DNA of 64,000 nucleotides from an uncultured Latescibacterota bacterium (GTDB taxonomy: Bacteria; Latescibacterota; UBA2968), in assembly GCA_951812755.1 (NCBI GenBank), contig OX638329.1:1163339-1227338 (forward strand), written 5' to 3'. This document shows, piece by piece, positions 3,292 to 16,478 of this stretch. A program made the position numbers and the translations under genes. Below the pieces are notes generated by a model. It did not search any database. It saw only the letters and a list, made by a program, of their open reading frames with translations, and had not been told where the DNA came from. How positions within the stretch are numbered: the first letter of the stretch is position 1; each line of letters starts with the position of its first letter.

Positions 3292-5142
3292 TTATGGACA
3301 TCCCGCTTGATAATTTCCAATGGCTTCCGATGTGTGCAAGTACCGGTTGTAAATCCGCAGGGCTTGAAGTCCGGAGCCGATTTGAAGCGTTTCAGCCCCG
3401 TTGGCGTGTCTCAGATTCGGGCTGAACCGCCCCCAGCCAAACTGGCGATTCGTACCTCCATCGCAGAGTTTGCCATCTACCACAAATGTGATGATCCTGG
3501 GACCGCCATCTACAATTGCCGAAATGTGGTGCTGTTCGCCTGTGCGCAGATAACCGGAATCGCAGTCCCACCGGTTCTCGGTTCGCCCGTCGTTTAATAC
3601 AATCTCGACTGTGCCTCGTTCCGTGGTTTGCACGCACATTCCCTGTCCGTTTTCCAGCCTGCTGTCCAGCAGTACCTGTCCTGCATCCAGCGATGGCAGT
3701 CTCAGCCATAGATCAATAGTAAATCCCTGTCTCAGATCTCGCGTTGGATAAGGACTGGCGCTGTCTCGCTCGTTGAATGCCGGCAGTTCCGGTATTTTCA
3801 CTTCGCCCAGATTTGGCTGAGACAATTCCAGTACGAGACCTTCGGTGGCTATTTCCCTATTTTCAGCCTGTTCCCACAAGCTCTCCAGCAGGGAGGTGTC
3901 CAACTCGTGTACGCGGGCGATATCCTTTTGAGTTTCTGTAAGATAATACTTCCCGCTGTCTTCCACCAGATCTGGATAGCTCATGCGGATGTACGGGTCG
4001 TCGTCATAAAGCGCGATTTCTGGTTGTGACCACTGGATTATACGGCCCTCTGGCGCGTCTGCTTCGATCCCGCCGCACAACCACACCGGGTTGCGGTCCT
4101 GATAAGATAATGAGCGCCGGTCCGGGTGCTCTCCGATAAACCGCCCCCCGTGGTTGTGAAACCAGTAGAGAAATTTTCCATTTTCGCATTGCCACGCGAA
4201 ATTAGCCGCTCTCGGATGTTTCATGCGTCGTCCGTCCGCAAAGCACTGATATATCGGCTCTGTCCAGGTATGCCCGTTGTCCCGGCTGTACGCGCATACC
4301 GGGTACCCATCAATCGAACGGTACACGCTGTAAAACGACCCATCGCTCAAGCGGCTGTAGCTGTGTTCTTCGGAGACTGGACCGCCTTCCGGTGGCGTCC
4401 GCAGTCCTGCATCGCCATCTGGCAGTGTCTCCCAGGCAATTTTCTGCGGGTCCTGTTCTGTCAGGATATTTTCGCTTTTTAGAAGTACGCCTTCCGAACG
4501 GGTGAAAAATCCCATCCCGAATCCTCCCACTTTGTGCAGCGATACGTACGCGGCCCGATCGTCGGCTATTGCCTTACCGACGTTCCAGAAATACCGCAGT
4601 TTGCCCCCGTCCGCGTTCTCCCGGTCAATCGCCATTTCTCGCACCGCAATCGGGTAGCGCTGTGCCGACCACGTCCGCCCGTGATCGTCGCTGTATTTAA
4701 ATACAAAATGTCCCAGTGAATCTACCCGGGTACAATATCCGTCTCTATAAGGTGGATTGTCTCCTTTTACTTTCCGGACATTGTCCGTGTTGTGATTGTA
4801 AAATACGTAAATCCGTCCGTATGGAACCTTCAGCACTACTGCATACGATGCCTCAGGTCCGTGTGCAGGCTCAATATCTACCAGATCTGCCCAGGTCTGT
4901 CCTCTATCAATACTGCGTGCCGACACTACGTGCTGCCCCTGCGCGCCTTCTCTGCCCGTTCCCGTTGTCATAATGCACAACCAGGCCCCGTCGTCCGTTT
5001 TTACGACATAGGGCTGATCGCAATATCCTTTGCTGGGAATTTTCCAGCCGTTTGCAATGTGACGCCAATCCGGAATCTCGGAGATGGTTTCCGCGGTCAG
5101 GCTCTGGTCTGCAAGTGCTGCTGCGTTCTGATTTTTAGGCAT
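3292..5142 (-). CDS. sialidase/neuraminidase-fold protein with C-terminal LamG-like domain
   Basis: A 616-residue protein whose first 400 residues form a BNR/sialidase-type beta-propeller. Three Asp-box motifs (SxDxGxTW) are visible: S77-W84 (SIDRGQTW), S151-W158 (SDDHGRTW) and one near residue 287 (SRDNGHTW). Residues about 440-610 resemble a concanavalin-like/LamG lectin fold (IDLWLRLPSLDAGQVLLDSR, ISAIVDGG, LQALRIYNRYL). There is no obvious signal peptide, so location is uncertain; the Asn-rich start gives no membrane segment. A glycan hydrolase or binding role fits the operon, which also encodes oxidoreductase and isomerase genes. The catalytic arginine triad was not confirmed, so true sialidase activity is unproven. 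Confidence 0.75.
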   Translation of the reverse strand: MPKNQNAAALADQSLTAETISEIPDWRHIANGWKIPSKGYCDQPYVVKTDDGAWLCIMTTGTGREGAQGQHVVSARSIDRGQTWADLVDIEPAHGPEASYAVVLKVPYGRIYVFYNHNTDNVRKVKGDNPPYRDGYCTRVDSLGHFVFKYSDDHGRTWSAQRYPIAVREMAIDRENADGGKLRYFWNVGKAIADDRAAYVSLHKVGGFGMGFFTRSEGVLLKSENILTEQDPQKIAWETLPDGDAGLRTPPEGGPVSEEHSYSRLSDGSFYSVYRSIDGYPVCAYSRDNGHTWTEPIYQCFADGRRMKHPRAANFAWQCENGKFLYWFHNHGGRFIGEHPDRRSLSYQDRNPVWLCGGIEADAPEGRIIQWSQPEIALYDDDPYIRMSYPDLVEDSGKYYLTETQKDIARVHELDTSLLESLWEQAENREIATEGLVLELSQPNLGEVKIPELPAFNERDSASPYPTRDLRQGFTIDLWLRLPSLDAGQVLLDSRLENGQGMCVQTTERGTVEIVLNDGRTENRWDCDSGYLRTGEQHHISAIVDGGPRIITFVVDGKLCDGGTNRQFGWGRFSPNLRHANGAETLQIGSGLQALRIYNRYLHTSEAIGNYQAGCP

Positions 5143-5147
5143 ATTCT

Positions 5148-6512
5148 CTATTGCCCCTCTTTCCAGTTCGGGTTGTACAGTTCTCCCGGCATTGTCGAGT
5201 GAATTAACTCATACACGCCGTAGCGCCGCCGGTCTTGAAATACGAAGAGATACCGCTTTGACCGATCGTAAGTCCATTTTTCTATTGCGCCTGCAAAATT
5301 CTCCGACGATTGTTCGAAGTCCCGGTCATCGGGTGGGCCGTATTTGATGTACACGCGGCCCTTGTCCGTGTCTGATCCCCGTTTATGGGCTTCTGACCCA
5401 AAGTGTTCATCGGCAAACTGTACCCGTGTCATGTGTTCTCGCAGTCGCTCGTTCAACGGCGTGCCGGGCGTTGGGTCCATCTTTCTCCAGAATGCTTTTA
5501 AGAAGTCCATGCGTTCCGCTTCGGTGGTCAGTGCTGCATAGCTGTTGAGATCCTTGTTTGATGCTATATACCGGATATCCTTAAAATATCGGAGTTGATC
5601 CTGCGCCTCTTCGCTCAACTCATCGGAAAACAGGAAGATCGCTCTGCGCTGTCGCACATGCTCCCGGGTGCCCCGGTCAAATGCCTCTATTTGAAAAAAA
5701 TAGACGCCCGCATTTAGTCCGTCTGTGTCGATTGTCTCTGTTTTGACAAAACTCTCTCCCGATACCCGAATCCGACGGGAAGGAAATTTTTTTATCTGCA
5801 TTCCGGACGAATCCGTAAAGCTGTATCCCAGAATTAGCGGCTCTGCAGGTTGGTCTTTTTGGCGTTTCAAATTGTAAATTTCAAAATAAACGGGCACTGG
5901 CTCGCCCGCCCGGTACCGATGGGTGACATTGGGTACTATATTCCACCCGTTTTTTACAAATTTTCCGGCTTCCTCTTGCGGCGTGATTTTTGTAGCAAAT
6001 AACAAATCGCTGATCGATAGGTCTTTTCGATCAAAATTTCGCACCTGGAGCCACGCCTCAAAAATCCCCGTCTTTCCGCTGTAAATATCCTCGGCTGATA
6101 GCTCGAGCCGATACGTTTTCGGGGGCAGGTCCAGTCCCACTATCTCCCGAACCACGGCGCCTGCTTGTCGGGGCGCGTTCATATCTGGAACTGAGATATT
6201 CTGTGTCCAGGTTTTGACCTTTGCCTTTTGTCCTGCTGAATCCGATAGGGTTACTGCATACTGCAACTGAGCCACAAAAGCGTCTTTCTGGGGTACAAAT
6301 TGGAGCGACTGGGCATCTACGACCGTACAGATATCTACTCGTGTGAATCCCTTTGGGCCTCGAAACCCGGTTGTTTCTACAACGATTTGCAACACCTCAA
6401 GGGTCTTCAACGACGGGTCTTGAATATTCTGTGCCCAAACGGGCGAGATACCCGACAGATGGATGAGTACGGCCGGAACGATTGTAAACCAGACCACATA
6501 ACAGAGTTTCAT
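5148..6512 (-). CDS. GWxTD domain-containing exported protein
   Basis: A 454-residue protein with a signal peptide at residues 1-27 (hydrophobic run, then VWAQ). The N-terminal two-thirds is beta-rich. The C-terminal part has the family block: an FWRKMDPTPGTPLNE stretch near 337, then TDKGRVYIKYGPPDDRD near 380-397. In this protein the position usually occupied by Trp in the GWxTD name motif is Ser (RGSDTDKG). The domain is of unknown function and is common in FCB-group and candidate-phylum genomes. A paralogue of almost equal length, with the same substitution, lies at 48765-50138. The gene is 5 nt upstream of the sialidase-like gene, so the two are probably co-translated. Confidence 0.82.
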   Translation of the reverse strand: MKLCYVVWFTIVPAVLIHLSGISPVWAQNIQDPSLKTLEVLQIVVETTGFRGPKGFTRVDICTVVDAQSLQFVPQKDAFVAQLQYAVTLSDSAGQKAKVKTWTQNISVPDMNAPRQAGAVVREIVGLDLPPKTYRLELSAEDIYSGKTGIFEAWLQVRNFDRKDLSISDLLFATKITPQEEAGKFVKNGWNIVPNVTHRYRAGEPVPVYFEIYNLKRQKDQPAEPLILGYSFTDSSGMQIKKFPSRRIRVSGESFVKTETIDTDGLNAGVYFFQIEAFDRGTREHVRQRRAIFLFSDELSEEAQDQLRYFKDIRYIASNKDLNSYAALTTEAERMDFLKAFWRKMDPTPGTPLNERLREHMTRVQFADEHFGSEAHKRGSDTDKGRVYIKYGPPDDRDFEQSSENFAGAIEKWTYDRSKRYLFVFQDRRRYGVYELIHSTMPGELYNPNWKEGQ

Positions 6513-15309: not shown

Positions 15310-15333
15310 AATCGTTCGAGATTTTCAAATATG

Positions 15334-15375
15334 CAAACGCCGGTGCAGGGTTTTATTGCACTGGCGTTTGTTTTT
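15334..15375 (+). terminator. rho-independent terminator after the receptor operon
   Basis: A 14-bp stem (CAAACGCCGGTGCA / TGCACTGGCGTTTG, one G-T pair) with a 9-nt loop at 15334-15370 is followed by TTTTT. It lies 25 nt after the PorV/PorQ-like stop codon and is the strongest terminator in the window. Confidence 0.85.
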
Positions 15376-15384
15376 GTCTAAAGA

Positions 15385-15682
15385 AAGCCCGTTGATCGGT
15401 TGTGATCGACGGGCTTGTTGTGTTGCACTTGAGGCGGCACGCGGTCTGCTCTTTCACAGTCTTAAAACCCAGGCCCCTAAACACTCTATCCCTATCAAAG
15501 CAGGGTTGTCATTTGTATGAAAGTTTGCCATATTTCTTTTTGTAAACTATCGTTTTTTATTGACAAGCATTCAGGGCAGGTTTACCGTAAAACGATGCCT
15601 CAAGTGATTATGTCTTGAAGAAAGAGACACGCATTGCAAAACAGTTCTGTTCGGGAGAAACTGGAAAGCGAGGATCATTGAT
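15385..15682. other. second hairpin and otherwise empty intergenic stretch
   Basis: A second, separate stem-loop (AAGCCCGTTGATC ... GATCGACGGGCTT, 15385-15416) follows the terminator by only 9 nt. It is not followed by a convincing T tract, so it may be a backup or reverse-strand structure. From 15417 to 15682 nothing further is recognised apart from a weak GAGG ribosome-binding site just before the next start codon. Confidence 0.6.
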
Positions 15683-16036
15683 ATGATTAAAATAGAGGAA
15701 GGCCAGACTGTGGATCAAGCCATCGAAATTCAACCTGAAGACGATGACCACACTCAAAAAATAAAGAGCGATTTGCAAAAGATAAGAGCGGAAAAAGCCG
15801 CATACGAAACTATGCGAGAGGAACTTGAGCGCGATCATCTTGGCAAGTATGCTGTCGTTCGAGACAAAAAACTCCTCGGAATTTTTAACGATTTCCGTGA
15901 AGCATGGATAGCTGCTGCAAAAAAATATGGCGTTGGAGGAGATACACACTATCTAATCCGACGCGTGGGACCAGATCAACCCCCATTCATCTTGCCGTCA
16001 TCAGTTCAATTTGGAGCTTTCGGTGAATCAAATTGA
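15683..16036 (+). CDS. small protein paired with a retropepsin-like protease
   Basis: A 117-residue soluble protein of unknown function. Residues 1-50 are charged and helical, probably coiled-coil (DDDHTQKIKSDLQKIRAEKAAYETM). Residues 52-115 form a compact domain: GKYAVVRDKKLLGIFNDF, EAWIAAAKKYG, and YLIRRVGPDQ. Proteins of this shape are, to my knowledge, recurrent neighbours of small aspartyl proteases in diverse bacteria. Its stop overlaps the protease start by 14 nt, so translation is coupled. It follows a strong terminator, so the pair is an independent unit. No catalytic motif is visible. Confidence 0.65.
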   Translation: MIKIEEGQTVDQAIEIQPEDDDHTQKIKSDLQKIRAEKAAYETMREELERDHLGKYAVVRDKKLLGIFNDFREAWIAAAKKYGVGGDTHYLIRRVGPDQPPFILPSSVQFGAFGESN

Positions 16037-16478
16037 ATGTGGTTTTCCTATTGACACGGCTTTGGTTGAATATGGGCCCTATCTCAATGTCTATATTGGC
16101 ACTGATACAACTTTTTATCCTGACAGTTCTAATCAGTTAAAAGGTCCATATCGAGCGTTGATTGATACAGGTGCATCACAAAATTGTATTGATAAAATTC
16201 TGGCCCAACAAATAGGCTTGACTCCCATTGAAGAACAAACAAGTTATGGGGCATCAGGAGCATTCACAGCCACTATATATTCAGGACAAATTTGCCTTCC
16301 TGACCTTCAGTGGGAAATTTATGGCGAAATTGTAGCTGTTGACCTGAAGGCATTTGGTAATTTTGATATTTTGATTGGTCGGACTACTCTTCAGCACTGC
16401 ATAATGACCTACAATGGACCAACAGGTAGTGTATTGCTTTCTCGCCCCTTGGACTTGACCCATCAGCAGGGCTTGTAA
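16023..16478 (+). CDS. retropepsin-like aspartyl protease
   Basis: A 151-residue protein with one copy of the retropepsin active-site motif (ALIDTGAS, catalytic D48) and the later hydrophobic-Gly flap partner (ILIGRTTL near residue 119). Single-motif retropepsins work as homodimers. I prefer the GTG at 16023, which has GGAG 6 nt upstream; a TTG at 16011 would add four residues. There is no signal peptide, so it is probably cytoplasmic. The N-terminus (FPIDTALVEYGPYLNVYIG) matches the pattern of bacterial retropepsin-like proteins found beside small partner proteins such as the one at 15683. Substrate and role are unknown. Confidence 0.75.
   Translation: MNQIECGFPIDTALVEYGPYLNVYIGTDTTFYPDSSNQLKGPYRALIDTGASQNCIDKILAQQIGLTPIEEQTSYGASGAFTATIYSGQICLPDLQWEIYGEIVAVDLKAFGNFDILIGRTTLQHCIMTYNGPTGSVLLSRPLDLTHQQGL

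What the first reader, a model, noticed from the sequence alone, without database searches (positions are those of the whole stretch)
15683..16478. Two-gene module: small unknown protein overlapping a retropepsin-like protease
The coupled pair stands alone after a strong terminator. The first gene has a charged helical half plus a compact VVRDKKLLGIF/YLIRRVG domain. The second is a single-motif retropepsin (DTGAS). I recall similar pairs in distant bacteria; function is unknown. A protease and its regulator or substrate adaptor are possible, including a toxin-antitoxin-like or defence arrangement.
Basis: partly seen in the sequence, partly recalled or inferred. Interest (0 to 1): 0.55.

Follow-up and report, generated by a model that had tools for sequence, protein, structure and literature searches.

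The report
Mobile retropepsin with paired small protein
Two overlapping bacterial genes, a small protein of unknown function and a relative of the HIV protease, form one compact unit that recurs across distant bacteria and phages and probably works as a protease held and steered by its partner.

Summary
In a Candidatus Latescibacterota genome a 117-aa DUF5678-like gene (15683-16036) overlaps a single-motif retropepsin (GTG 16023-16478). Pairing is near-obligate: 38 of 39 strong protease hits in 386 genomes have the small gene directly upstream, as do 78 of 80 named bacterial loci, the other two at contig ends, and 109 of 119 viral-contig loci. Genes overlap in 85 of 106 distinct pairs. Relatives carry both domains in one chain or a FitA-like ribbon-helix-helix on the small protein. 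In the host genus the unit is about 1 kb, patchy and relocated, and its protease is repeatedly deleted while the small gene stays open. Best reading: a mobile protease controlled by its partner, toxin-antitoxin-like in layout. Binding, inhibition, toxicity and anti-phage effect are not shown; AlphaFold2 of the joined chain did not dock the small protein's tail; some phage proteases lack the partner. Nine literature searches found no description of the pair.

The parts
15333..15371 (+). intrinsic-terminator-like hairpin closing the upstream gene
   Evidence: DNA identity with sister genome G007 ends at 15379, just after it
15385..15416 (+). second terminator-like hairpin
15455..15682 (+). leader carried with the pair (promoter region, inferred); left end of the block shared with G010
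   Evidence: local alignment to G010 starts at window 15455
15683..16036 (+). gene 1: 117-aa DUF5678-like small partner (stop codon included)
15746..15835 (+). long charged helix, residues 22-51
   Evidence: AlphaFold2
15845..15967 (+). strand-strand-helix-strand domain, residues 55-95
   Evidence: AlphaFold2
15977..16033 (+). C-terminal tail with ILPSSVQF; predicted disordered; family motif hydrophobic-P/R/S/H-A/S/T
16013..16016 (+). GGAG, likely ribosome-binding site for gene 2, inside gene 1
   Evidence: read
16023..16478 (+). gene 2: retropepsin-like clan AA protease, 151 aa (alternative start TTG 16011)
16164..16178 (+). catalytic DTGAS motif
   Evidence: D-T-G-A invariant in alignment A2
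16368..16382 (+). ILIGR, the hydrophobic-hydrophobic-Gly motif of retropepsins
   Evidence: G-R invariant in alignment A2
16449..16461 (.). right end of the DNA shared with G010 (to 16449) and G009 (to 16460), at the protease C-terminus

Best explanation
The two genes make one functional unit: a cytosolic, presumably homodimeric retropepsin and a dedicated small protein translated just before it. The small protein's ordered domain binds the protease and keeps it in check until a cue releases or redirects it. Its conserved hydrophobic C-terminal tail (ILPSSVQF here) is a candidate pseudo-substrate or dimer-interface strand. The unit travels as a roughly 1-kb cassette, is dispensable, and is carried by chromosomes and prophages as a toxin-antitoxin-like or defence-like cargo. 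Shown: near-obligate pairing, gene overlap, intact catalytic motif, single-chain fusions and RHH fusions in relatives, mobility and repeated protease loss. Inferred: binding, inhibition, the role of the tail, the cargo function. Confidence is about 0.9 that the proteins act together and about 0.5 for the inhibitor or antitoxin direction; the figure below is for the latter.
For: Pairing: 38 of 39 protease hits (E<=1e-8) in 386 genomes have the small gene upstream: 36 by join, plus G207 and G021; the 39th, G200, is a 620-aa frame not examined. Also 78 of 80 named loci and 109 of 119 viral loci. Overlap in 85 of 106 distinct pairs. Fusion: DUF5678 (7.8e-15) and Asp_protease_2 (4.5e-8) in one 209-aa protein; 25 of 51 matches, in 23 of 119 genomes, cover at least 180 of its 209 residues in one open frame. 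FitA-like RHH (7.7e-4, below cut-off) on a DUF5678 partner; 15 of 23 matches in 147 genomes span both domains. Asymmetry: 12 of 49 small-gene hits lack a downstream protease hit, one of these 12 (G019) itself a fragment, and none of the 38 examined proteases lacks the small gene (Fisher p 0.0009, lineages not independent). Independent core deletions: L017/L023 and L018/L019 have different junctions, and G010 lacks 16016-16380. In G000 a type-B small gene is open beside a protease remnant. Tail motif in 55 of 91 tails against 12.8 in shuffles. No recurrent third gene: 110 Pfam families over 146 nearest bacterial neighbours, none in more than 3.
Against: AlphaFold2 of the joined window chain leaves the tail disordered (residues 99-125 below 50) with pTM 0.55, so no docking is seen, though only one protease copy was modelled. 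Eight of 119 viral loci (L195, L250, L269, L279-L283) hold a protease and no recognised small gene; L197 and L275 are at contig ends. Stable single-chain fusions argue against a simple labile antitoxin. Small-anchored searches cannot see loss of the small gene. Frameshifts in draft assemblies may inflate protease loss (6 of 80 named loci), and L133 has a shortened small gene. Neither the window protease nor the fusion is found among 72,556 plasmid records. No expression, binding or toxicity data exist.
Confidence: 0.5

Rival explanations
1. The small protein is an activator or targeting adaptor: it brings one substrate to the retropepsin, which does regulatory proteolysis, as RimB does on ribosomal protein RpsF. 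Type-B proteases have SEC-C or lysine-rich tails, so a ribosome or nucleic-acid target is possible.
For: Single-chain fusions fit a permanent adaptor better than an antitoxin. SEC-C tail in L231 (8.9e-8) and basic tails in L048, L079, L082. RimB is a retropepsin that acts on polyglutamylated RpsF, and that paper states that the few known bacterial A2 peptidases involve other protein factors (passages of PMC11957791).
Against: Patchy distribution, relocation and repeated protease loss in the genus are unusual for a regulator of a core process. The small gene outlives the protease, which an adaptor should not. The window protease has no such tail.
Confidence: 0.27
2. The small protein is the substrate: its tail or its fused DNA-binding domain is cut by the protease under stress, changing transcription, in the manner of the repressor-protease pair ImmR-ImmA (recalled).
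For: RHH-DUF5678 forms exist. A repressor-like HTH gene lies directly upstream, same strand, in 10 of the 11 viral loci of one neighbour cluster, several of these loci being re-fetched copies of one contig. Six of 133 nearest viral neighbours match Peptidase_S24. [quoted passage not shown]
Against: Most small proteins, the window's included, have no recognised DNA-binding domain. Most bacterial pairs have no regulator next door. Resemblance of a tail to a peptide is only a lead.
Confidence: 0.17
3. In phages it is a structural or prohead maturation protease, and chromosomal copies are remnants.
For: In L191/L254 the pair sits between what reads by eye as portal/head-morphogenesis and scaffold/capsid genes (Phage_Mu_F in 2 of 133 neighbours).
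Against: Other viral copies sit by integrase or repressor genes. Chromosomal copies are mostly intact and stand alone (62 of 80 named loci have both genes at set coverage).
Confidence: 0.03
4. Chance neighbours or an annotation artefact.
For: None found.
Confidence: 0.01

Closest known systems
Bacterial retropepsin-like proteases (RimB, RloA, APRc; clan AA, family A2)
   Same: single D-T-G motif, retropepsin fold (top Foldseek hit APRc 5c9b, E 8.1e-5)
   Different: RimB sits with ATP-grasp RimK and RloA with RloB/RloC (passages of PMC11957791 and PMC12239564); here the only constant partner is a DUF5678-like small protein and no ATP-grasp gene is adjacent
Pfam DUF5678 (PF18929)
   Same: 10 of 68 relatives hit it at E<=0.001, and 18 of 30 fetched DUF5678 loci also hold a clan AA protease profile hit
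   Different: the window protein scores 13.4 bits, cut-off 23.2
Type II toxin-antitoxin modules (FitA/VapB-type RHH antitoxins)
   Same: upstream small overlapping partner, mobile cassette, RHH in some relatives
   Different: effector would be an aspartic protease; fusions exist; neutralisation untested; no RHH in the window copy
PADLOC candidates PDC-M52 and PDC-M08
   Same: their B proteins match related proteases (L301 to PDC-M52B, E 2.4e-9); the window protease weakly to PDC-M08B (0.0063)
   Different: none of the small proteins tested matched a partner model

Membership tests
Retropepsin-like clan AA protease | single D-[ST]-G-[AS] motif in a one-lobe chain | tested here: met
   DTGAS at 16164-16178 in a 151-aa chain; invariant in A2; Pfam PF13650 5e-7 over cut-off
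Retropepsin-like clan AA protease | retropepsin fold | tested here: met
   AlphaFold2 core blocks of 88-97; Foldseek: 20 chains at E<=0.001, all aspartic proteases
Retropepsin-like clan AA protease | active homodimer | not testable with these tools
   only single chains could be modelled
Pfam DUF5678 | score over the gathering cut-off | tested here: not met
   13.4 bits against 23.2; relatives do better
Type II toxin-antitoxin module | two small co-directional overlapping genes, partner upstream | tested here: met
Type II toxin-antitoxin module | DNA-binding domain on the antitoxin | tested here: not met
   window copy: none; a relative has FitA-like RHH below cut-off
Type II toxin-antitoxin module | effector never without partner | tested here: inconclusive
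   38 of 38 examined strong hits have it but 8 of 119 viral loci lack it
Type II toxin-antitoxin module | effector toxic alone and neutralised by partner | not testable with these tools
   bench test needed
RimABK / RloABC systems | ATP-grasp ligase encoded with the protease | tested here: not met
   flanking window genes match UPF0164/PorP-type or nothing
PADLOC PDC-M08 / PDC-M52 | both component models matched | tested here: not met
   B models only; small proteins give no partner hit

The most novel reading that the evidence does not exclude
A new class of conflict module whose effector is an HIV-type aspartic protease: a DUF5678 partner, sometimes fused to a FitA-like DNA-binding domain or to the protease itself, holds a retropepsin inactive through its Pro-Ser tail and frees it on phage infection or stress. 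SEC-C or basic tails in the phage branch aim it at ribosomes or nucleic acid.
Probability: 0.33. Interest if true: 0.85.

Novelty: new variant of a known kind. Interest (0 to 1): 0.6.

Why it matters
Few bacterial retropepsins have a known role, and those that do work with other proteins (passages of PMC11957791). Here is a two-gene unit found in many phyla and in phages, unnamed in the literature searched, with ready-made single-chain and RHH-fused forms that make the partnership testable at once. If the small protein inhibits the protease, it would be a natural genetically encoded inhibitor of an HIV-protease-fold enzyme and possibly the first aspartic-protease effector of a toxin-antitoxin or defence module.

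Tried and rejected
Profile search of genome contigs with the small-protein alignment A1 failed for lack of a conserved stretch; the protease alignment A3 was used instead. Foldseek with the small protein alone gave nothing at E<=0.001. PDB sequence search with the small-protein profile gave only a chance-level hit, and with the presumed RHH of L296 nothing; that RHH is by eye only (one search gives no RHH hit). Joining all fragments to one fused row gave a wrong alignment (A5 not used further); adding natural read-through rows mended it. Docking of the tail was looked for and not seen; the rise in small-domain confidence to one search is not evidence of binding since the alignments differ. Plasmid carriage: no record for the window protease or the fusion, one for an L020-type small gene, followed by an 'aspartyl protease family protein'. 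dN/dS of small genes beside dead proteases is low but does not date the loss, so it is not used. Defence-island context: among 146 nearest neighbours the PADLOC matches shown are mostly methyltransferases in 1-3 members, not convincing.

Full report
What is there. Gene 1 (15683-16036, 117 aa) and gene 2 (GTG 16023 or TTG 16011 to 16478) overlap and follow two terminator-like hairpins. Gene 2 is a retropepsin-like protease: PF13650 at 5e-7, DTGAS and ILIGR motifs, high AlphaFold2 confidence in the core, and best structural match APRc of Rickettsia conorii. Gene 1 is a helix followed by a strand-strand-helix-strand domain and a disordered tail. It is a distant member of the DUF5678 superfamily: below cut-off itself, while 10 of 68 relatives hit at E<=0.001. 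The sister locus L085, almost identical in sequence, is titled Candidatus Latescibacterota.

Census. In 386 genomes the small-protein profile hit 38 and the protease profile 64. Joining the 49 small hits with 51 of the protease hits (those down to E 5.5e-6; weaker rows were left out of the script) gave 37 small hits with a protease hit directly downstream, one of these a truncated protease (G006:C2), and 36 of 39 proteases at E<=1e-8 with the small gene directly upstream. Two of the three exceptions do have it (G207; G021); the third, G200, is a 620-aa frame that was not examined. An independent protease-anchored set of 80 named loci (the best 80 of 134) has the small gene in 77, plus L097 on inspection; L095 and L159 are at contig ends. 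Their titles span Proteobacteria, Acidobacteria, Chloroflexi, Nitrospinota, Bacteroidota, Planctomycetota, Binatia, Poribacteria and others. Viral contigs: 32 of 34 and 77 of 85 loci; several contigs were fetched twice by different queries, so loci are not all distinct. Eight viral loci have a protease with no recognised partner. Of 106 distinct pairs 85 overlap, 18 have 0-30 nt between them and 3 more (start codons chosen by script).

Architecture of the wider family. Type A (window) proteases are about 150 aa. Type B, common in viral contigs, end in SEC-C or lysine-rich tails (SEC-C 8.9e-8 in L231). Classical DUF5678 genes (36 of 386 genomes, 0 of 14 controls) also go with clan AA proteases: in 18 of the 30 loci L299-L328 the protease profile also hits, in the same frame as the small domain or close by, and L317 has a protease by motif; two of the 30 (L326, L328) look like false hits. 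Relatives of G385 carry both domains in one frame: 25 of 51 matches, 23 of 119 genomes; 13 of 15 fetched loci show the ORF of 204-217 aa. Relatives of G139 carry a FitA-like RHH in front of DUF5678, spanning both in 15 of 23 matches, and 14 of 20 loci show the protease directly downstream by a simple motif search (six not resolved by it). Their tails end LPSPMV, VPSPRL and the like, matching LPSSVQF here.

Mobility and decay. DNA 96% identical between G007 and the window stops at 15379, just after the terminator, and the pair is absent there. G009 is 98% identical to 16460. G010 shares only 15455-16015 and 16381-16449, in other surroundings, so it has the leader and small gene but lacks 16016-16380, most of the protease; its small gene ends with a changed last few residues. 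Elsewhere in the window's own genome two more small genes are open without a working protease: one with the protease gone, one with repeats inserted and a protease remnant. In the same genus L017/L023 and L018/L019 carry different internal deletions that remove the catalytic core. L041 has the protease start joined to a HigA-like reading frame (name by eye). Among the 80 named loci six proteases look disrupted (L117, L126, L131, L136, L138, L148) with the small gene covering 0.89 or more of its model, and one small gene (L133) is shortened beside a degenerate protease. Solo small 12 of 49 against solo protease 0 of 38: Fisher p 0.0009, or 0.003 with 9 collapsed events. The collapse is my judgement, one of the 12 is a fragment, and lineages are not independent.

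Context. The nearest bacterial neighbours (146, deduplicated) fall into 110 Pfam families, none with more than 3 members, so the pair is not part of a larger operon. Nearest viral neighbours (133 of 164 listed) include Peptidase_S24 (6), phage integrase (5) and HTH_3 (5). A repressor-like gene lies directly upstream on the same strand in 10 of 11 loci of one cluster. Of 146 bacterial neighbours few match defence models, those shown mostly methyltransferases.

Mechanism. That the two proteins act together follows from pairing, overlap and fusion. That the small protein restrains the protease is inferred from gene order, the RHH forms and one-sided decay. It competes with an adaptor role, favoured by the fusions and by the RimB precedent (passages of PMC11957791), and with a substrate role, favoured by the repressor context and the Pro-Ser tail. 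The tail motif is over-represented (55 of 91 tails against 12.8 in shuffles; the pattern was chosen after looking). The model of the joined chain did not place the tail on the protease.

Comparison with what is known. Fold and motif membership in clan AA is met. Membership in DUF5678 by cut-off is not met for the window copy. Type II toxin-antitoxin membership is not claimed, because the DNA-binding domain is missing here and neutralisation is untested; 'works like one' stays open. PADLOC's candidates PDC-M52B and PDC-M08B are related proteases, but no small protein tested matched a partner model. Another paper calls such candidates unvalidated and traces them to a guilt-by-embedding approach (passages of PMC12988326). 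No paper on this pair was found.

Noticed in passing
L007:4295-4700 (own genome G000:C1:6439294-6439699): three near-identical repeats of about 120 bp, each with 'gtgcatcgtggcgtaagtcatg', inserted inside a decayed type-B copy of the pair
   Followed up: partly
L269, L280, L281, L283 around 4900-5500 (L282 similar): solo type-B protease begins where a tail-protein-like ORF (host-specificity J-like, by eye) is cut off, at the same point in related viral contigs
   Followed up: partly
L041:1730-2113: first residues of the protease (MPCFSG) joined to what reads as a HigA-like antitoxin frame
   Followed up: no
L017, L018, L022, L023: core-deleted or truncated pairs in the host genus lie beside a recurrent gene that reads as an Rpn-type nuclease/transposase (by eye)
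   Followed up: no
L080, L081, L084, L175, L212, L231: SEC-C zinc motif at the C-terminus of many phage-branch proteases, replaced by lysine-rich tails in others
   Followed up: partly
ranks 1 and 50: structure search with the joined chain hit two separate proteins of one phage, Siphoviridae sp. ct3o911: an aspartic protease and an 86-aa protein
   Followed up: no
L364 (Leptospira phage vB_LbrZ_5399-LE1): a type-B protease match in a stretch with no annotated gene at 4001-4330, just after an annotated short hypothetical gene
   Followed up: no
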